10,139 bases of DNA from NCBI GenBank assembly GCA_021014945.1, contig MU266881.1, forward strand, positions 1 through 10,139. The letters run 5' to 3'. Positions 1-10,139 of the stretch are shown in pieces. Numbering within the stretch: position 1 is the first letter of the stretch; each line of letters opens with the position of its first letter. The position numbers were made by a program, and so were the translations under genes. Source of the DNA: Leucogyrophana mollusca. Taxonomy: Eukaryota; Basidiomycota; Agaricomycetes; Boletales. Below the pieces are notes generated by a model, which saw only the letters and a list, made by a program, of their open reading frames with translations, searched no databases and was not told the origin of the DNA.

Positions 1-592
1 AGGAATGGTAAATCGGCTCACTGAATGTGGCAAGTTTGGAAACCGTTATAAAGCCTCCCATGCGTTGGAATCATACGACCCGACATGCCGTTTTCGACTA
101 ATCTTGGCGAAGCCCCCAAAACCAATACTATGGATTATCTTCTGCGATAAATATGCTATGTATCTGACAGCTTAGGCTGTCGGCTCTGTTCTTATATAGT
201 AGTCATCAACTCATATACAACTTTCTCTTTCGCGAACATTTTGGTGTGAGTGGCGAAAATGAACATGCTCAAATCACGCCAACTGGTTTTTTGTGATGCT
301 GGAACTAGCAAACGGGAACAACTGATCTGAAGCAGGCAGACCAGTGGGACTTGGACAAACTTGGGGTGGCACTGGGACCAACAACAACACCCCACTGTAC
401 ATGTATGTGGGTGGGAAAACATTCTCAGCGTCATGTCCCAGTCGTTTCGGCACTCGGGCAACTGTTTTGCGACCTCTAACCGTATCGTTTCCTTATGCAT
501 ACTCTTTTCTCACTGATGGACTAGCTGTTGACTCAGGCGGGGCCACTGTTTTGCTACTTCAACAAGTTCAATTTCAATTTCTTCTCCACAGG
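1..592. other. Left-edge sequence, no confident gene
   Basis: No gene is supported here. Several frames stay open for 70-100 codons on both strands, including a minus-strand frame open from 492 down to a TGA at 274-276 that reads plausibly (Pro- and Ser-rich, ending in Lys-Asn-Gln-Leu-Ala). None has a convincing start, splice context or recognisable family. On the minus strand the words GCAAAACAGT-GCCC occur twice, near 457-475 and 543-560, suggesting a short degenerate duplication. A pyrimidine-rich stretch ending in CCACAG near 575-592 is a good candidate 3' splice site for the + strand feature that follows. Confidence 0.3.
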
Positions 593-1443: not shown

Positions 1444-2342
1444 ATGAAATTCGCTCCCATCATTCTTCTCTTCGCCACTTTGGCCATCGCTGCTCCTCAG
1501 CCGGGGTACTCGAAAGACAAGGATGTTGATCATTACGGTGTCGGACCAAAGAAGTATGCGAGCGCGCCTTCGTTTCTCCGTCCCTCTCGCTGACCCTAAG
1601 GCTATTACAGGTCGGAGAATGGGTATCACCACGGCAGTGAACACGGCGTGAAAGGGTACGACTATGGGAAGGGATATGACCATGACCATGGCAAAGGATA
1701 TGTCAGAAGGGGCTACTATGGCCAGGGGTACGACGATGTCAAAGGGTACGATGATGGCAAGGGGCACGATGACGGCAAGGGGTACGACAATGGAAAGGGA
1801 TACGACAATGGAAAGGGATACGACGACGGCAAGGGGTACGATGATGGAAAGGGATACGACGACAGCAAGGGGTACGATGATGGCAAGGACTGCGATGACA
1901 GCAAGGGGTACGATGACAGCAAGGGGTATGACGACGGCAAGGGATACGACCAGGGGAAAGAGGATGGCGACGAGAAGGGCTACGACTATGGAAAAGGCTA
2001 CGTCAAGAGGGGCGGTGATGGAAAGTGGTATCACGATGGCAAAGGATACGACGATGGCAAGGATGACAAGGGGCACAAAGGCGGCAAGGGGTATGACGAC
2101 GGGAAAGGCAATGACAGTGGCAAGGGATACGATGATGGAAAAGGGTACGACAACGGCAGGGGCTACAATGATGGCAAGGGCTACGACGACGGCAAGGGCT
2201 ATGACAACGGCAAGGGCTACGACGACGGCAAGGGCTACGACAATGGCAAGGGGTACAAGGGGTATGTCCGTCAATATTTTGCCCCGCTACAAGTCTGGTA
2301 GCTGACAGTCGCTCAACCTACAGAACTGAGAAGGAATACTAG
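1444..2342 (+). CDS. Secreted disordered hexapeptide-repeat protein (GKGYDD type), three exons
   Basis: Exons are 1444-1553, 1611-2261 and probably 2324-2342. Intron 1 (57 nt, GTATGCG donor, CTGAC branch, TTACAG acceptor) holds an in-frame TGA, so it must be removed. Intron 2 (62 nt, GTATGTCC donor, CTGAC branch, CTACAG acceptor) gives 259 residues ending in Gly-Thr-Glu-Lys-Glu-Tyr. If it is retained, the frame ends at the TAG at 2299-2301 with 266 residues. Residues 1-17 are a signal peptide (Lys-Phe-Ala-Pro, then a hydrophobic core ending Ala-Ile-Ala-Ala). From about residue 51 the chain is almost wholly hexapeptides Gly-Lys-Gly-Tyr-Asp-(Asp/Asn/Ser), with a single Cys at residue 131. Dibasic Kex2-like sites Arg-Arg (69-70) and Lys-Arg (169-170) both follow Lys-Gly-Tyr-Val. 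The protein is inferred to be secreted and unfolded; its function is unknown, and a wall-associated, adhesive, metal-binding or Kex2-processed peptide role is possible. Confidence 0.85.
1648..2258 (+). repeat. Degenerate 18-bp tandem repeat coding for GKGYDD hexapeptides
   Basis: The repeat core of the gene at 1444 is a tandem array with an 18-bp period of the form GGC/GGA-AAG-GGG/GGA/GGC-TAC/TAT-GAC/GAT-GAC/GAT. Most differences between units are at third codon positions, which means the peptide, not the DNA, has been conserved. The array keeps two other frames open as well: a + frame rich in Met/Thr/Arg and a minus frame made of Val/Ile/Ala/Leu/Pro. These are by-products of the repeat. Confidence 0.85.
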
Positions 2343-2703: not shown

Positions 2704-5178
2704 CTACCCGCTCGTCCGCCTCCCAGTATACCCGCGCAACACGATCTCGTCCACCTCCGCGAGCGCCTCTAGCGCTTTAGACATCCGCACCCGTGAGGTG
2801 GGGGAGATGGGTTCGCCGGGGGAAGCAGCACCTGCCGTATCGTAGACCGGAGGAAGGGACCCGTCGCGGGTCCGTACCTTTGTAGGACGTGGAGGCGACG
2901 CGTCTTTGTATGAGGGGAAGGGGAGGAGGGGAGGCGGCTTTGGGGACCGTAGTTTCCTAGTCGTCGCTTTGCGCTTCTTGGAGGGCAGCGGGAAGAGCTC
3001 GGGGGAGAGCTCAGCGCCTGCGGCCGTCTTAGGGTCCCGGCTCTCCAGTGCCCCCATCCCCATCTCGGAGAAATCGACCGGCCCCATCTTGGGCCACTCA
3101 ACGGCACCCATCTTGGGGCTCTCGAGCACCCCCCGCGCGGCGACGAGGCTGAGGGACGTGCTCGACTGGAGGGGCGGGGAGGTGAAGAAGAGGGTCGACG
3201 CGAGGGGCGGGGACATGAGCAGTGGGGGGCTGCGGGGCAGGATGGAGGAGTCGATGCGCGGTATCGAGGAAAGACGGGCCGGGGGCGCCTCAGGCTCCAC
3301 GCCACTCCGCTTCCGCCAGGACGGGCGGCGCTGGGGGAGAGTGGTGTATCGATCTGTGAACTGGTCCCCTCGAGTAGGCGTGCTCTGCTGGTCGCCACGC
3401 AGCGGTGCGTTGTCCTCACTGTTCGGTGTGCTGTTCTCGTCGTGGTGCTGGTGGTGCTGGCGGCCCGTTTTCTTGCGCCGTATCGTATCCCAGATCCCGC
3501 TCTGCCTTGGCGTCTCTCCTTGCTCGACTTCGTGCTCCTTCTCCCCAGTAGAGTCCCCATGGCTTTGCATGATCCTGAATCCGCTCCCGCCTACCCATAC
3601 CGTCCGAGGTTGAGGCTCCGCGTCGTCCTTCTCCACCCGCCGCGTCCGAGCCTCATCGCCTTCCGCCTCAGCGCCCCTCACGACACCCCTCTCCTTCCTG
3701 GGCGTGCCAGCGGGAGAATACGTCTTTCCAGGCCGCTGCAGCGACCTCGTGCCGCGCGCACCGCCGGTGCTCGGATCGGTGGACCCGCCATCACTCCCGC
3801 CGCGCCGCAAGCTCTCTAGACGGCTCTGTCCACTGATACTCACAGAACCCCCGTCGCTCCCACCACGCCTCAGGCCCTCCAGGCGACTCAGACTGCGCGT
3901 AGGCATTCCATGGCTCATGTCCACGTCCACGTCCGCATTCACATCTACAGCTGCGTACTCCTCATGGCGCAGTGCACCGAACTTGAGGCGGTCGAGGATC
4001 CCGCGGCGGATGGGCTTGGATTTGAGTCTGGGCTGCGTGGGATTCATAGCAGCGCCAGCTGTATCATCATCTTCGCTGCCTGGCGGCGCTGCAGCGACGT
4101 CAACCGATAGACGAGATGCAGTGACATCGATTGATGGCCGAGTCGACGACTCGGTGACGAGGAACGGATCGAGCTCGCACTCACGCTCGCTGACAAAGCT
4201 CGGGCCCATAATAAACGGAGGCCGCGAACTCACCCTCTCTACCTCTACCCCCACCTCCCCACCCCCATCCACCCCCGGCTCGCGCGCGTGCGACGACTTC
4301 GACCGCCCACGGGACGGCCACAGCGTGCTCCTGTGCTGGCTGGCGCTGGATGGCCCAGAGTCACGCGCGTCCGAGGGCGGCCACAGGGTGCTCCGGTGGG
4401 ACGGTCCACCGGAGGGCCACAGATTGGAGCGTGCGCCGTACCGCGCGCCGTGCACGGAATATTTGCTCGGGCTGCTGGCGTGTGCATGTGCGAAAAGCAT
4501 GGCTTGCTCCGTGTCCTCACCGTGCCGCGCCTCTTCCTGCGTGTCCTCCTCTTCCCCGGGGACGTACGCAGGTCCGTGCTCCAGAGAACCGTATCGCGGC
4601 CCAGGCTCCAGCGAAACCACCCTCCCGCGGCGCCTCCCACCGTGGTTGCCGCACCACCGGAGGCACGCCCACGCCGCCAAACACCCCAGCCCGACGCCCA
4701 AGACGGCAAACACGGGCGCGAGGTAGACGACGTTGAAGGGCGTGTGGGGGGTGATCTTGGGGGGTGGACGGGGTATGGGTGTATTACTGGCTGGGGGAAG
4801 GGCGGGTATTTGAATTAAGGGGGCTGTGGACGCGGGGTCGTCTAGTACGGGGGTGGAGGTGGACGGGATGGTCATTGAAGCTGCCGACGAGGGCAGTGAA
4901 GCTGATATGTCCGCCGAGGTCGGAATCCCTGCGCTGACGTCGGCGGTGGCGGGTCCGGGGGACGACGGAGGTGCTGTTGTGCTTGCACCCCAAGCTGGGT
5001 AGGGCCACCAGAAGTCGTAGTTAGACGTGCTGGGGTCCGGATCGCCAGCGGGGATGGCCTGCCGCGCGTAGTTGATGTCATAGTGGCTTATGATGGGGAA
5101 GTACGCGGAGGTGGTGAGGGAAGGGGTCTGGGACTCGGACTCGGACTTGGATGCTGGGGCGTGGTGGGCGGTTTTCAT
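2704..5178 (-). CDS. Single-pass membrane protein with Ser/Pro-rich ectodomain and long disordered tail
   Basis: This is one uninterrupted frame. The first ATG is at 5176-5178, because the upstream extension to 5217 has only a TTG, so the protein is 824 residues with a TAG stop at 2704-2706. Residues 1-147 are rich in Ser, Pro, Thr and Ala, with an aromatic Tyr-Asp-Phe-Trp-Trp-Pro-Tyr-Pro-Ala-Trp patch at about 54-63. Residues 149-172 form one hydrophobic helix (Val-Val-Tyr-Leu-Ala-Pro-Val-Phe, then Gly/Leu/Ala/Cys), followed by Arg-Arg-Arg-Gly-Arg. By the positive-inside rule the tail is cytoplasmic. I see no signal peptide, so it is probably a type III protein, unless an upstream exon supplies one. 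The tail of about 640 residues is low-complexity and charged, with two sets of short repeats and basic clusters (Lys-Lys-Arg-Lys), and ends in a Glu-Val-Asp-Glu-Ile-Val-Leu-Arg-Gly-Tyr motif. Family unknown; a surface sensor or scaffold is only a guess. A broken copy lies at 7577-8021. Confidence 0.85.
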   Translation of the reverse strand: MKTAHHAPASKSESESQTPSLTTSAYFPIISHYDINYARQAIPAGDPDPSTSNYDFWWPYPAWGASTTAPPSSPGPATADVSAGIPTSADISASLPSSAASMTIPSTSTPVLDDPASTAPLIQIPALPPASNTPIPRPPPKITPHTPFNVVYLAPVFAVLGVGLGCLAAWACLRWCGNHGGRRRGRVVSLEPGPRYGSLEHGPAYVPGEEEDTQEEARHGEDTEQAMLFAHAHASSPSKYSVHGARYGARSNLWPSGGPSHRSTLWPPSDARDSGPSSASQHRSTLWPSRGRSKSSHAREPGVDGGGEVGVEVERVSSRPPFIMGPSFVSERECELDPFLVTESSTRPSIDVTASRLSVDVAAAPPGSEDDDTAGAAMNPTQPRLKSKPIRRGILDRLKFGALRHEEYAAVDVNADVDVDMSHGMPTRSLSRLEGLRRGGSDGGSVSISGQSRLESLRRGGSDGGSTDPSTGGARGTRSLQRPGKTYSPAGTPRKERGVVRGAEAEGDEARTRRVEKDDAEPQPRTVWVGGSGFRIMQSHGDSTGEKEHEVEQGETPRQSGIWDTIRRKKTGRQHHQHHDENSTPNSEDNAPLRGDQQSTPTRGDQFTDRYTTLPQRRPSWRKRSGVEPEAPPARLSSIPRIDSSILPRSPPLLMSPPLASTLFFTSPPLQSSTSLSLVAARGVLESPKMGAVEWPKMGPVDFSEMGMGALESRDPKTAAGAELSPELFPLPSKKRKATTRKLRSPKPPPLLPFPSYKDASPPRPTKVRTRDGSLPPVYDTAGAASPGEPISPTSRVRMSKALEALAEVDEIVLRGYTGRRTSG
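3781..3888 (-). repeat. Tandem 21-residue repeat in the membrane-protein tail
   Basis: The segment Ser-Arg-Leu-Glu-(Gly/Ser)-Leu-Arg-Arg-Gly-Gly-Ser-Asp-Gly-Gly-Ser occurs twice in a row, 63 bp apart (residues 431-445 and 452-466 counting from the ATG). Only one of 15 residues differs, so the duplication is recent or conserved. Arg-Arg-Gly-Gly-Ser resembles a basophilic kinase site; that is inference. Confidence 0.75.
4312..4431 (-). repeat. Three Arg-Ser-(Thr/Asn)-Leu-Trp-Pro repeats in the membrane-protein tail
   Basis: The motif Arg-Ser-(Asn/Thr)-Leu-Trp-Pro occurs three times, starting at about residues 250, 262 and 283 of the 824-residue protein, separated by Ser/Gly/Pro-rich linkers. 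Trp is otherwise rare in the tail, so the motif may be a short docking peptide just inside the membrane. The function is unknown. Confidence 0.7.
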
Positions 5179-5290
5179 GATCAGAAGAGTGCCTGCTGCG
5201 TGCTGTGGTGTGATCAAAGTGTACTACTGTGCTTTGTGGCCTGGTCCGAGTATGCTACTGCACAATGTGATCGAGGGCGAGGAGGCCGAA

Positions 5291-5701
5291 CGTAAAGAGC
5301 TGAGGTCAGCTGTGATTACGTCGATCGACGAATGAGGACCGGGGGCTGGGGTCTGTCAGCCAGACCAGTTCGCCAGGGACTATAGCGATGCGAGCTGCGA
5401 GCGTATTAGTTAAATTCGCGCTTGGAGCGTAATGGGGTAAGACTCACAGAGGGGTGGTCCGACTCTAGGTCAAGGATGGTTGCTGAGCGCAGAAGCGGAA
5501 CGCCTCGACGATGTGCGCGTGTTGCACGGTGGAGGGGTCGGCGCGTTGTCTGTTGTCTGTTTTCTACTGTTCACGAAGGGGCGAAGGAAGGATCTGGTGT
5601 TTGGATGTGACCTTGAGCGGGCGACTGAGACCATTTCGATTTCGACGGTCGAAACTGAAATCGAGGGACTTGGGTGACGTATATATAGTGAAGTCGGCCA
5701 T
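5291..5701 (-). pseudogene. Decayed copy of the small Met-Ala-Asp gene (homologue of 6892-7540)
   Basis: An ATG at 5699-5701 opens a frame beginning Met-Ala-Asp-Phe-Thr-Ile-Tyr-Thr-Ser-Pro, then Lys-Ser-Leu-Asp-Phe-Ser-Phe-Asp-Arg-Arg. This aligns with Met-Ala-Asp-Leu-Thr-Val-Leu-Val-Ser-Pro and Asn-Ser-Leu-Asn-Phe-Asn-Phe-Ala-Arg-Arg of the intact gene at 6892. The frame stops (TAG) after 45 residues, but homology goes on in another frame (Lys-Gln-Thr-Thr-Asp-Asn against Lys-Gln-Pro-Ile-Asp-Asp). The exon border CCCCTCT|GTGAGT at 5448/5447 matches CCCCTCT|GTAAGT of the intact gene. A decayed second exon follows from about 5379: Leu-Ile-Arg-Arg-Ser-Thr is retained at 5319-5336, then a stop, then an Asp-Leu-Ser-(Ser/Ala)-Leu block near 5294-5308. 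The frameshifts and stops make a working full-length product unlikely. A short 45-residue protein cannot be ruled out. It sits just upstream of the membrane-protein gene, in the same order as in the right-hand copy. Confidence 0.72.
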
Positions 5702-6762
5702 CGTAGGAGTGAGCTGGTTGGAGGACGGTGCGCGTAGCAATTTGAGGATCGAATGTCTGTGCTTATTGATAACGGTAACAAATGTGTGCTGCCTGGCGAA
5801 CGATTGGAACTCATTGACTGAGGGTGAATGGCAGTGAATAATGGAGCTATAATCTGCCGCCGTCTCTGGGACACGCTGCCGATACTGAGGGCCGGGCATA
5901 CGAGCATCTTCGTTGTGTTGTATTCACCGAACTTTGCGGTTCGACGTCGCCTCCCTTCACCAGCTCCTCATCCCCCTGACCTATCAACGTCAACGATCGT
6001 GAACAATCACGTCGTGCTATAGTGTAACATCGATATAGGCGATTCCCGGTTTGAATACTCGAGAGATTCGTACCGGAGCTTACCTTGTGCAGATATACTT
6101 CTACCCCCACGTCCCCGGCCCTCTCCGCACCCTAAGCGCTCTCCGTCGTGAACGTCAGGAACTTCGCCGAGCCCGTCATGCGAGCTTGCATCCGCCTCCA
6201 AGTCCTATACGCTCTCAGCACCCTCAGTCACGAGCTTCACCGCGTTCCAGTGCTTCACTCAGTCCCGAAGCTCCCCCGTCCCGAAGCCTCTCTCCGTCTC
6301 CAAATCTTCTTCTCCCGCGCCGCCGAGCTTCTTCTTCACTTGCCCAGGCTTATCTAGCTCCTCCCCACATCCACGCTCATCTCGTGCCAAGACTGCGCTC
6401 CGTTCCCAGGTCCTCTATAACCCCGGGCTCGTCCTGAGAGGCGCGTGTGTCGTGGCACATGTCTGAGCCGTACGCGGAATCTTTCAAGGAAGATGAATTT
6501 ATTAGAGCATTTTAGTCGATAGGTTAATTAACGATGAACGGCGGGCAGGAGCAACAGTATTAGGATGAGATGTATCGAGTGATGGAGCTCGGAGCTTGGA
6601 GGCCCGAACGGCGGGGGGTTTTCTAGGGATGTCAATGAATACCTTGCATGTGAGACAGAGATAGTTGAGAGAAGTAGTTCAGCTCGCCTGCCAGTGCAGG
6701 GATAGGCCAGTTAGAACAACGGGAAGTAGCCGAGCGAGTCGGTGGTTGCTGCAAAGAATGTC

Positions 6763-6770
6763 TTACGTAA
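6763..6770. promoter_or_regulatory. TTACGTAA bZIP-type site, distal copy
   Basis: TTACGTAA is a perfect palindrome matching the binding site of fungal Yap-type and related bZIP factors (established knowledge of the family). It lies 122 bp upstream of the ATG at 6892 and is followed by TGTGATGCGC. The same word recurs 31 bp further on. Confidence 0.5.
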
Positions 6771-6793
6771 TGTGATGCGCCCTCCGCCATTAA

Positions 6794-6801
6794 TTACGTA
6801 A
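6794..6801. promoter_or_regulatory. TTACGTAA bZIP-type site, proximal copy
   Basis: This second perfect TTACGTAA is followed by TGATGCGC, nearly the same flank as the distal copy. The 31-bp start-to-start spacing is close to three helical turns, which would put both sites on one face of the DNA. It is 91 bp upstream of the ATG at 6892. No TATA box is visible, so these sites and the C/T-rich stretch at 6851-6870 are the likely promoter elements. Confidence 0.5.
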
Positions 6802-6891
6802 TGATGCGCGCCGACATCTATTCTGGGGTCAGCGGGACGACAACGCACCCACTGTACTTCTTTCCCTCGTTACAACGTGCTGGTCGGTACA

Positions 6892-7540
6892 ATGGCCGAC
6901 CTCACCGTACTCGTCTCGCCGACGCCGCTCTACCCGCGGCCCAACTCTCTCAACTTCAACTTTGCCCGTCGCAGCCAAACGGATCTGACTACTCGGCGCC
7001 CGGTGATGGTGACCCTCCAAACGCCGGACCCTGCGCCGTCCTCACCACCTGAGAAGCAACCGATTGACGACGCTTTACTGTCACCACCGCGAAACACCTT
7101 CAAGGCCTCCAGGTCTCCTCCAAAGCGCCCAGCCTCTGCGCCCCCCACTCAGCCTTCCTTTGCAATAGAGCCCCAGCGCGTCCCTGCGAGCGGCCCACCG
7201 AGGAGCACCTTCCAGCGCAGAGTCGTATCCTCCTTCACAAGCAACACACCCCACAACGAACTAATCCGCCCGCCCCCACCCCTCTGTAAGTCCCTCCCCA
7301 TCCCCCAACCCAGCCTACTTCCTAAATTCACACCCAGTTCGCCCGACGACGTTCTGGCGAAAAACTAAGAGGTCGGGCGTAACAGGCCCTTCGTACTCTC
7401 CCTCCTCCCACCTCATCCGCAGATCCACCTTCATCGCTGCCGGCCTCGACCTCGAAAGGCCAGATGCCGACCTCTCGGCCCTCTGCGTTGAGTCGCGCGT
7501 CGCGTTTCTCGTGCTAGGCCCAGACCACAGCGTGCAGTAG
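6892..7540 (+). CDS. Small Ser/Pro-rich protein of unknown function, two exons (intact copy)
   Basis: Exon 1 is 6892-7285 and exon 2 is 7338-7540, separated by a 52-nt intron (GTAAGT donor, CTAAAT branch, ACCCAG acceptor) that splits a Phe codon after its first base. Without splicing the frame stops at 7366-7368. The start is ATG 6892 (context TACAATGG), since the upstream in-frame codon at 6877 is only a GTG. The 198-residue product has no signal peptide or membrane helix. Residues 1-30 carry Met-Ala-Asp-Leu-Thr-Val and Asn-Phe-Asn-Phe-Ala-Arg-Arg; residues 45-130 are Pro/Ser/Arg-rich and probably disordered. Exon 2 is more ordered and starts Arg-Pro-Thr-Thr-Phe-Trp-Arg-Lys-Thr-Lys, then Leu-Ile-Arg-Arg-Ser-Thr-Phe and Ala-Asp-Leu-Ser-Ala-Leu-Cys. 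I do not recognise a named family. The homologue at 5291-5701 is broken. A relic of the membrane-protein gene begins about 40 bp downstream. Confidence 0.75.
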
Positions 7541-7576
7541 TCGTTGCGGCCCTTGCGCAGTCGTCTGCCACAGCGC

Positions 7577-8021
7577 CCATGTGTGCCCTCAATTTGGCGC
7601 CCTCCCCCTAGCGAACCCTGCGACCTCAACTATGCACGACAGGCTACGCCTTTTAGCTCTTCCTCGTAGCGTTGCGCGCGTCCCCCTCTACAGTCCCCAC
7701 CACGTCACCCACCCCCAACCTCAGCGCTCTCCCAATACCATCACCACTCCCGGCGCTCCCCAAATGCCAGCATCAGTGCAGGCCTCCCAGTCTCGGTGGG
7801 CGTATACATACTACACAGCTTCGGGCGTGGGAAGCTGGGATGTAATGGCGTTGTGTTGGGGTGCTGGGCTGCACAGGCCAGGTGCAAGGTACGGTATGTG
7901 CGGTGGAGGCGTAGGCGTCATGTTCGTGCGAGACGTGGTATCGCTGAAGGGTGGATCATAGTACGGGTCCCTTGTGCACGGGCCAGCGTATGTCCTCCCT
8001 GAAGACGACGATGTCAATTAG
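7577..8021 (+). pseudogene. Truncated, decayed copy of the membrane-protein gene
   Basis: Blocks matching the N-terminal third of the 824-residue protein occur in the same order on +. At 7622-7651, Asp-Leu-Asn-Tyr-Ala-Arg-Gln-Ala-Thr-Pro matches Asp-Ile-Asn-Tyr-Ala-Arg-Gln-Ala-Ile-Pro. At about 7690-7765 there is a Pro/Ser/Thr-rich stretch. At about 7845-7905 there is a membrane-helix remnant (Val-Val-Leu-Gly-Cys-Trp-Ala-Ala) followed by an Arg cluster. At 7935-8018, Val-Val-Ser-Leu then Tyr-Gly-Ser-Leu-Val-His-Gly-Pro-Ala-Tyr-Val matches Val-Val-Ser-Leu and Tyr-Gly-Ser-Leu-Glu-His-Gly-Pro-Ala-Tyr-Val. A TAG (7959-7961) falls between the last two blocks where the intact protein has Arg, and another TAG closes the frame at 8019-8021. 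The blocks lie in different frames, and I see no match to the remaining 600 or so residues. It is therefore a pseudogene. Confidence 0.75.
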
Positions 8022-8930
8022 AAATAAGATAAGATGCGGGAAAGTCTGGAGCTCACGCAGGGGCTCGACCGTTTGGGGGGGACACTGGCGGGGGGAGACC
8101 ACGTGCGGGAGTAAGACCGCTTGCAGGAAGGGGGGACGCGTGCAAAACGAGGAATTCCCGCAAGACGGGGATCATACGCATGACGAGGAACGAGCGTGCG
8201 GGGCGTCCCACCCTGTCCGCAATGCGGCGTCTGGGGAGCGGCGAGAAGCAGGGGAGCGACGCCCGAGGCGCTTGTACAGCGAGGCCTGGGCGCGGATCGC
8301 CGCCGTGGGCCACAGCGACGCTGGGAGGCACGGAAGGCTGCGGACAACTCGTCGTGCGCGCCGTTCAAGGCCAGCATTGTAAAAGGGTGGGTACTGTAAC
8401 TACGCCCCATGATCTTGTGTAGGAAATGTTGACTGGCAACGCATGCCGTAGCGGCGCCAGGCCCGCCAGAGAGAATCGCCCAGGGGGCGGAGATGGCTTG
8501 CAATACCAAAATGCTCGTCCAGCGGGTGCGGGCCAGTCGGGTGCTATGCTTAGCCTCCCGTTCAATGTGTATCGACGTAAGGACGCGAAGGCGACGATAA
8601 TACCGCGAACACATAAATAAGTACTTGAAAGACATAGACGCAACGCATTTAGTCTAGTCCTCGTTTCTCAACTCTGCCCCTCGGCTGACCTCCAACCCCC
8701 AGAACAACGTGCGCGCGAACTATCTCCCCGACTGATGACAACAGTCCCGGATATCGGTTCTCTAAGCTGATTGTACGCACGTCTGCCCGAGGCTTAATCG
8801 CAGATGAGCCGAGGACGCGAAAGTTGATCAGAATGAACGGCAGCGCGGACGTCACGCTACTATATCCGAGAATAAGATCAGATATGTACATACACCACCG
8901 CGAAGAACAGACAAGCGGGGTCCGACTCGC
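8022..8930. other. GC-rich spacer with no supported gene
   Basis: About 900 bp between the end of the membrane-protein relic and the 3' end of the right-edge gene. The longest frame is on minus (8018-8635, 205 codons, ATG start), but its product is a biased Arg/Ser/Pro/Ala mixture without a recognisable motif, and several other frames are equally open, as expected in GC-rich DNA. I see no continuation of the membrane-protein homology. The last 250 bp should contain the 3' UTR of the minus-strand gene at right. A CACGTG E-box word occurs at 8100-8105 without clear meaning. Confidence 0.4.
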
Positions 8931-10101
8931 CTACCGCCCCCGCAAGTACCTCCGCCGTCTGAAGTACTCCCCGAAACAAATGGCGTCCAAGCACCCCGTG
9001 TCTACGTATTCCGACTCGGAATCGCTATCCTGTGACTCTGAATCCGAGTGTGGGTTGCTCCGGACACCGCCGCGCTGCGCTCGCGCACGAAAGCGTCGGC
9101 CTTTTCTGCCCCGAGGAGGCGCGGCGAACAGTCGCTATGGGAGCTCACGGTTAAATCAAACCGGGTCGACGGTGATGGGGTGCATACTTCATCAAGTTTT
9201 CCGAACGCTACGTTAGCCTTGCCCTTGTTTCTTGATGGCCGTGTTCGGGTATGGGAAGCTTGTGTATTTTCTGGTGTGTCTGCATCTCTTTCTGGACGTG
9301 CTTGTTGATTGGCCGGCAACTAGGTAGCATGAGTAGATATAAAATGAATGTTAACGTTCTTTCTGAAACTTACCTCTGGAGGGGCGGGAGCAATATTGGC
9401 GCGCTCGTGAAGGGGTAGAGGTAAATGAGGGGGGCCGTCCGGGAGGTCCACCGGAACGCGAGATTTGCGATGCCGGATATCCCGCCAGCGTTCACGGATG
9501 TTGCGTGACCAGTTGCGGCCAGACACGACGGGCTGAACGGTCGATGTTCCTTGCTTAGGGGTAGGATCCCGTTGAGGTTCGGTCTGTCGCTCAAAATGCA
9601 CAAGAATGAGAGGATACCGCGCAAAAGAGCCCGACGAACACTTACGAGGCGCGGACATATCGACTCGGTGTCCCAGTCGTCGAAACTCAGCTGTCTTGTC
9701 TGCGGGCGCTGGGTGGCGGGCTGTTGTTGCACAACGGCGGGGAGCTGGATATAATGCGGGACATCAGTTTCGAGATTAGGGTACGGGGGAAAACTCGATA
9801 ATTATTAGCAGGGGTTAATTAGCAGGGGTTAATAACTGTTATTAACTGTGAATAATAGAGGGGTCGGATGAGGGGATGTAAAGAAATGTTAATATTATCT
9901 CCTGGCCCCCAGACTTACACGACGCCCTTCCGCGAGATGCCCCAAGCCACATTGGACCGAAAAAACATCTTTTCATCAATATACGATAATTCGACGTATC
10001 TTACTCCTTCCCAGTGTATCGCCAAGAAAATATATTCCGTCAAGCCTAACTCAATGCCAGAAGAGTGCACGATGTCAGTCTTCACGAGGTTTAATACACC
10101 T
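8931..10101 (-). CDS. Last five exons of a multi-exon gene running off the right edge; product unknown
   Basis: Exons in transcript order are about 10101-9919, 9793-9646, 9583-9374 (or from 9589), 9319-9188 and 9134-8931, with a TAG stop at 8931-8933. Introns are 125, 62 (or 56), 54 and 53 nt, with donors GTAAGT, GTAAGT, GTAAGT and GTATGC. All phases agree: the first junction splits a Val codon 2/1 and the rest fall between codons. The 10101 start is uncertain; there is no in-frame ATG and a TGA lies at 10113-10115, so earlier exons are outside the window. About 290 residues are visible. The first exon looks folded (Leu-Gly-Leu-Thr-Glu-Tyr-Ile-Phe-Leu-Ala-Ile-His-Trp). The middle is Gln/Pro/Arg-rich with Ser-Phe-Asp-Asp-Trp-Asp. 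The last exon has an acidic Ser cluster (Ser-Asp-Ser-Glu-Ser-Gln-Asp-Ser-Asp-Ser-Glu, CK2-like) and a basic end (Phe-Arg-Arg-Arg-Arg-Tyr). No family is recognised. Confidence 0.72.
9805..9832. repeat. Perfect 14-bp tandem duplication over an intron branch site
   Basis: TTAGCAGGGGTTAA occurs twice with no gap (9805-9818, 9819-9832). It lies in the 125-nt intron of the minus-strand gene. Read on minus, each unit carries CTGCTAA, so the likely branch-point sequence has been doubled just upstream of the TCGAG acceptor. Confidence 0.8.
9829..9845. repeat. 17-bp palindrome in the same intron
   Basis: TTAATAAC, one T, then GTTATTAA form a perfect inverted repeat with 8-bp arms. It overlaps the end of the 14-bp tandem duplication. 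It may be a small insertion footprint or a simple AT-rich palindrome; no terminal repeats of a known element are seen. Confidence 0.7.
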
Positions 10102-10139
10102 CTTCGAAATCGTCAGCAAGTCAGTACCCTTGTAAATAT

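What the first reader, a model, noticed from the sequence alone, without database searches (positions are those of the whole stretch)
2704..8021. Inverted duplication of a two-gene unit with reciprocal gene loss
The order small Met-Ala-Asp gene, then membrane-protein gene, on one strand, appears twice head to head. Left copy (minus): small gene broken (5701-5291), membrane gene intact (5178-2704). Right copy (plus): small gene intact (6892-7540), membrane gene broken and cut to its first third (7577-8021). Each gene survives once, in opposite copies. This turns a co-oriented pair into a divergent pair about 1.7 kb apart and shows that the two genes were neighbours before the duplication, a hint that they may be functionally linked.
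Basis: partly seen in the sequence, partly recalled or inferred. Interest (0 to 1): 0.9.

Follow-up and report, generated by a model that had tools for sequence, protein, structure and literature searches.

The report
Flipped gene-pair duplicate with complementary losses
In a wood-rotting mushroom relative, a pair of neighbouring genes was copied in mirror image and each copy then lost a different gene, so two genes that once sat almost touching on one strand now point away from each other; it is a well-preserved example of a known kind of gene-order change, with a hint that the pair was once read as one unit.

Summary
The window is a whole 10,139-bp contig of Leucogyrophana mollusca (Boletales). 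Its minus arm carries a broken small gene (5701-5224) and an intact 824-aa single-pass membrane-protein gene (5178-2704). Its plus arm carries the intact small gene (6892-7540, one 52-nt intron) and a broken remnant of the membrane gene (about 7622-8011). Both broken copies match their intact partners above all shuffles and all control windows tried. They share the splice donor, the small gene's C-terminal end with stop, and an insertion absent from Hygrophoropsis and from every relative in which the site could be located (30 of 50).

On the left arm the small gene's stop lies 45 nt before the membrane gene's start, so the ancestor was a tight co-oriented pair. Third codon positions differ twice as often between arms, suggesting both copies worked for a time.

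Best reading: inverted duplication with reciprocal loss, a known kind of rearrangement. Whether the right copy was ever complete, and whether the pair was co-transcribed or works together, is open; no relative's DNA could be read, so orientation elsewhere is untested.

The parts
2704..5178 (-). Left copy, gene 2: intact 824-aa single-pass membrane protein (hydrophobic stretch about residues 146-176)
   Evidence: Open frame; one hydrophobic stretch; relatives in Hygrophoropsis, Trametes, Plicaturopsis; no Pfam family
5224..5701 (-). Left copy, gene 1: broken small gene, exon 1 clear, exon 2 and stop recognisable; stop lies 45 nt before the membrane gene's ATG
   Evidence: frameshifts and a stop; of 120 homologues the window's own intact copy scores best
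5702..6891 (.). Centre between the two arms; no clear similarity between its halves, no copy elsewhere among the scored matches
   Evidence: best score 22; 39 of 74 candidates scored
6892..7285 (+). Right copy, gene 1, exon 1 of the intact small gene (198 aa in all)
   Evidence: 69% identical to the Gyrodon lividus protein
7286..7337 (+). 52-nt GT-AG intron; the donor is conserved in the broken left copy (26-nt match 7276-7301 / 5457-5432, 85%)
7338..7540 (+). Right copy, gene 1, exon 2 of the intact small gene
7622..8011 (+). Right copy, gene 2: broken remnant of the membrane gene (about residues 34-212), including the juxtamembrane insertion; firmest over 7847-8011

Best explanation
A tight, co-oriented pair (small gene, then membrane gene, with tens of bases between them) was duplicated head to head in the Leucogyrophana lineage after it split from Hygrophoropsis. 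For some time both copies were under protein-level selection. Then the small gene decayed in the left copy and the membrane gene in the right copy, leaving one working copy of each on opposite strands about 1.7 kb apart. Shown: the two mirrored arms, their order and orientation, the broken state of one gene in each, and the shared insertion. Inferred: the timing, the period of double function, and that the right copy was once complete.
For: Significant alignment of both arms in mirrored order. Shared splice donor, C-terminal end with stop, and DINYARQA motif. The insertion YGSLEHGPAYVPGEEED lies in both arms but not in Hygrophoropsis nor in any of the 30 of 50 membrane-protein relatives in which the site could be located; 20 could not be assessed. 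Each broken copy matches its own window partner best: 1st of 120 listed small proteins; 119 against at most 82 for the 15 membrane relatives tried. No other full copy of either gene found in the 32.3-Mb genome. Arm differences by codon position, three alignments summed: 40/157, 39/157, 77/156. A model in which the broken copies were never constrained is rejected for both genes together at p = 0.02 to below 0.001, depending on the constraint assumed. The two genes lie on contigs of equal length, 18,822 bp in Hygrophoropsis aurantiaca and 700,875 bp in Plicaturopsis crispa.
Against: Taken singly, the codon-position bias is p = 0.004 for small exon 1, 0.46 for exon 2 and 0.046 for the membrane remnant, and the remnant alone does not firmly reject 'never functional' (p = 0.19 to 0.016). 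Part of the third-position excess comes from the intact copies. No trace of the remaining three quarters of the membrane gene was found beside the remnant. The tracebacks differ from the nucleotide alignment at the edges. The Hygrophoropsis small protein ranks only 105th of 120 against the broken left copy, though it is itself divergent with insertions. The tree leaves the base of Boletales unresolved, so the age rests on the insertion alone. No unnamed metagenome contig had equal lengths in the two hit lists.
Confidence: 0.68

Rival explanations
1. Partial duplication: only the small gene and the front part of the membrane gene were copied in mirror image. The right membrane fragment was dead on arrival and only the small gene moved, with later decay of the old small copy.
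For: Nothing of the later three quarters of the membrane gene is found at 8001-8900. For the right remnant alone, 'never functional' is not firmly rejected (p = 0.19 to 0.016).
Against: In the right remnant third positions differ twice as often (24 of 51 against 12 of 51 and 12 of 52, p = 0.046), whereas a separate broken fragment of the same gene on contig C414 shows a flat pattern (29, 29, 33 of about 162 each). That fragment comes from a different, more variable part of the gene, so it is an imperfect control.
Confidence: 0.3
2. Two steps: direct tandem duplication of the pair, then inversion of one copy. The outcome is the same, and this is compatible with the later history in the best explanation.
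For: Nothing in the sequence tells the two routes apart; no breakpoint signature was seen in the alignments.
Against: It needs one more event.
Confidence: 0.25
3. Assembly artefact: two haplotypes or two loci joined in mirror image in a short contig.
For: The contig is short and its ends match sequence of other contigs at 99-100%.
Against: The aligned arms are only 63-70% identical, far too different for haplotypes. Each arm holds what the other lacks, and no other copy of the pair was found in the assembly.
Confidence: 0.03
4. Chance similarity of GC-rich, proline- and serine-rich sequence.
For: Exact shared words are short; plain blastn gives only one 26-nt match at E = 0.003. Two short edge matches are reached by 4 of 500 shuffles each.
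Against: 0 of 200 and 0 of 100 shuffles and 0 of 280 and 0 of 240 genomic windows reach the main scores; the order is collinear, with shared donor, stop and insertion.
Confidence: 0.01

Closest known systems
Duplication and random loss of gene order (TDRL; passages seen in PMC7936035 for fish mitochondria)
   Same: A segment of several genes is copied, one copy of each gene decays, gene order changes, and remnants in the spacers reveal the path.
   Different: Nuclear, mirror-image instead of head-to-tail, and protein-coding genes of a fungus. An inverse form of the model is recalled by me; the papers my search listed did not describe it (passages of PMC2648760 use the phrase in another sense).
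Reciprocal loss of duplicates after genome duplication in yeasts (recalled; search listing only)
   Same: Alternative copies lost in the two duplicates change who neighbours whom.
   Different: A local two-gene duplication, not a whole-genome one.
Polycistronic gene pairs of Agaricomycetes (PMC4503453; abstract, passages and sections 9 and 12 read)
   Same: Two co-oriented genes close together in this fungal class. Reported mean spacing in Plicaturopsis crispa is 364 nt; in P. crispa the two families here lie on contigs of equal length.
   Different: No transcript evidence here, the supplement listing the pairs could not be read (cap zero), and in this species the pair has been split.

Membership tests
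Inverted duplication with reciprocal (random) loss | Two arms alike in reverse orientation and same gene order | tested here: met
Inverted duplication with reciprocal (random) loss | A different gene broken in each arm, one working copy of each found in the genome | tested here: met
   Frameshifts and stops; no other full copy found
Inverted duplication with reciprocal (random) loss | Both copies complete after the duplication | tested here: inconclusive
   Codon-position test favours it for the two genes together, weakly for the right membrane copy; three quarters of that copy are missing
Inverted duplication with reciprocal (random) loss | Co-oriented pair in relatives that lack the duplication | tested here: inconclusive
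Agaricomycete polycistronic transcription unit | Same-strand neighbours at short distance | tested here: met
   45 nt on the left arm between the recognised stop and the ATG; this is the ancestral state only, the working genes are now divergent
Agaricomycete polycistronic transcription unit | A transcript spanning both reading frames | not testable with these tools
   No transcript data available
Any named protein family | Pfam match of either protein | tested here: not met
   No match at E up to 1 for the window's membrane protein or for 3 small and 4 membrane homologues

The most novel reading that the evidence does not exclude
The small gene and the membrane gene are an old, operon-like bicistronic pair of Agaricomycetes whose products work together, and Leucogyrophana is a natural experiment in which the pair was unlinked by mirror duplication and complementary loss and rebuilt as a divergent pair that may share one promoter region.
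Probability: 0.25. Interest if true: 0.6.

Novelty: new member of a known kind. Interest (0 to 1): 0.42.

Why it matters
It is a readable fossil of how gene order and strand can change in a nuclear genome without any gene being moved: copy in mirror image, then lose alternate members. If the pair was co-transcribed in the ancestor, the locus also lets one ask whether such fungal pairs need to stay linked, and it points to two uncharacterised Agaricomycete protein families as possible partners.

Tried and rejected
The C414 fragment (C414:10671-11152) as the missing end of the right copy: it covers residues 445-613, is 81% identical over 485 aligned columns and shows no codon-position bias, so it looks like a younger, separate fragment.

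Orthology of the broken left small copy with the divergent Hygrophoropsis small protein: not favoured, it ranks 105th of 120.

RIP-like decay: CpG and TpG/CpA ratios of the broken copies are mixed (CpG observed/expected 1.26 left, 0.83 right) and give no clear signal.

A folded domain in the small protein: the model of a homologue (P0002, 50 of the 120 listed proteins in the alignment) is poor (mean pLDDT 55.5), so no fold search was made.

Relatives' DNA: none found in viral or prokaryote collections. Rfam: nothing at gathering score. Literature for the inverse form of the duplication-loss model: the hits used the phrase in another sense or were unrelated.

The small-protein search listed only 120 of 232 hits, so linkage could not be checked in the Trametes group.

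Full report
What the window is. It is a complete 10,139-bp contig (C540) of a 32.3-Mb, 545-contig genome. Outside the splice junction the intact small protein is identical to a protein of Leucogyrophana mollusca from a contig of the same length (P0001), a species placed in the Boletales. The contig's ends match other contigs at 99-100% (C85, C495, C238), so the neighbouring genes are unknown.

The two arms. Left arm, minus strand: a broken small gene 5701-5224 and an intact membrane-protein gene 5178-2704. Right arm, plus strand: an intact small gene 6892-7540 with a 52-nt intron and a broken membrane-gene remnant, about 7622-8011. Plain blastn sees only one 26-nt match, at the splice donor, but gapped alignment is clear: scores 60 and 71 against shuffle maxima of 38 and 42 in 60 shuffles each. 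With a frameshift-tolerant aligner the scores are 127 (0 of 200 shuffles reach it) and 119 (0 of 100). Among control windows from 8 fetched loci of the same genome, 5 of them around a repeat family, 0 of 280 and 0 of 240 reach these. The matches lie in the same order on both arms. Small details agree: the donor site (7276-7301 / 5457-5432), the last residues and stop of the small gene (ILGPGHKAQ* at 5253-5224, LVLGPDHSVQ* at 7508-7540) and the DINYARQA motif near the start of the membrane protein. Tested on their own, small exon 2 and the front of the membrane gene are only moderately significant (4 of 500 shuffles reach the score in each case), and the tracebacks place these edges differently; their weight comes from being collinear with the rest. 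Upstream of the small gene, and beyond the arms, the best alignments score only 22 and 31.5 (these two were not shuffled).

How tight the old pair was. On the left arm the stop of the broken small gene ends at 5224 and the ATG of the membrane gene starts at 5178: 45 nt between them. On the right arm 81 nt lie between the small gene's stop and the first recognisable membrane-gene codon. So before the duplication the two genes stood almost end to start on one strand.

Age and order of events. Next to the membrane-spanning stretch both arms carry the same extra segment (YGSLEHGPAYVPGEEED in the intact copy). It is absent from Hygrophoropsis and from each of the 30 of 50 relatives in which the site could be located; in the other 20 it could not be assessed. 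The simplest reading is that the arms separated after the split from Hygrophoropsis. Each broken copy is closest to its own window partner: first of the 120 listed small proteins, and 119 against at most 82 among the 15 membrane relatives tried. The tree of 34 of the 120 small proteins leaves the base of Boletales unresolved, so it does not date the event.

Were both copies once working? Aligned differences between arms are 40/157, 39/157 and 77/156 at codon positions one, two and three (three alignments summed). Singly the bias is p = 0.004 (small exon 1), 0.46 (small exon 2) and 0.046 (membrane remnant). If the broken copies had never been constrained, a smaller excess at position three is expected; that model is rejected for both genes together at p = 0.02 to below 0.001, for the small gene alone at 0.06 to 0.0005, and for the right membrane remnant alone at only 0.19 to 0.016, depending on the constraint assumed for the intact copy. 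A separate broken fragment of the membrane gene on contig C414 (81% identical over 485 columns) shows no such excess (29, 29, 33), though it is from a more variable region. So a period of double function is likely, but for the membrane gene it is not proven, and a partial duplication remains a serious rival because nothing of the gene's later three quarters was found beside the remnant.

Was the pair linked elsewhere? The hit lists give contig lengths. In the two other named species where both hits come from one assembly, the lengths agree exactly: Hygrophoropsis aurantiaca 18,822 bp (P0065, P0122) and Plicaturopsis crispa 700,875 bp (P0027, P0169). That they are the same contigs is an inference from equal length. 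Taiwanofungus camphoratus, the only other species in both lists, was left out because its two hits bear different strain prefixes and unequal contigs. Among unnamed metagenome contigs no length occurs in both lists. Only 120 of 232 small-protein hits were listed, so the many Trametes relatives could not be checked. Strand and distance in these species could not be read; scans of the viral and prokaryote collections found no relative.

What the proteins are. The membrane protein has one hydrophobic stretch, a serine/threonine/proline-rich front part and a long tail with short motifs shared with relatives (SLEPGPRY, SPSKYS, RRGIL). It has no Pfam match. The small protein is found across Agaricomycetes (232 hits, 120 listed), conserved most strongly in its last 66 residues or so. 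It has no Pfam match, and the model of a homologue is mostly unordered (mean pLDDT 55.5). A sensor-like role for the membrane protein and a partner role for the small one are guesses by analogy.

Comparison with what is known. Copying a segment and losing alternate genes is the duplication and random loss model, best known from mitochondrial gene order (passages of PMC7936035). Here it is mirror-image and nuclear. Agaricomycetes are reported to make many transcripts spanning two neighbouring genes, with Plicaturopsis crispa as the main species and a mean spacing of 364 nt between frames (PMC4503453, abstract, passages and sections 9 and 12). The ancestral 45-nt spacing would fit that, but there is no transcript evidence here. 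My literature searches listed no description of this locus; they cover open-licence papers only, and none searched for the gene names.

Verdict. Its interpretation is right in the main. The functional link is a reasonable lead and not a result.

Noticed in passing
window 1444-2300 (segment 302-2506): Gene for a secreted-looking protein made of about 30 six-residue GYDDGK-type repeats; the segment has three further copies in the genome (C260 90%, C189 82%, C227 75% identical).
   Followed up: partly
window 8894-9774: High-copy dispersed repeat, dozens of matches at 65-84% identity across the genome.
   Followed up: no
window 1-298 and 9774-10109: Both contig ends are near-identical to other contigs (end of C85 100%, start of C495 and a stretch of C238 99%), so the assembly seems to break at repeats.
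   Followed up: partly
C414:10671-11152 (L019, L025): Third, younger broken fragment of the membrane gene (residues 445-613) in a region without other similarity to the window.
   Followed up: yes
window 7286-7337: The public protein P0001 is spliced differently and is eight residues longer at the junction; the 52-nt intron gives the PPPPLFRPTTFWRK junction seen in relatives.
   Followed up: yes
window 2704-5178: No public full-length entry for this membrane protein turned up in the capped search; only a 501-aa piece without source or name (P0121), so it may be missing from the annotation.
   Followed up: no
P0083 (Boletus edulis): A second, divergent small-gene copy in Boletus edulis with an altered front part.
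   Followed up: no
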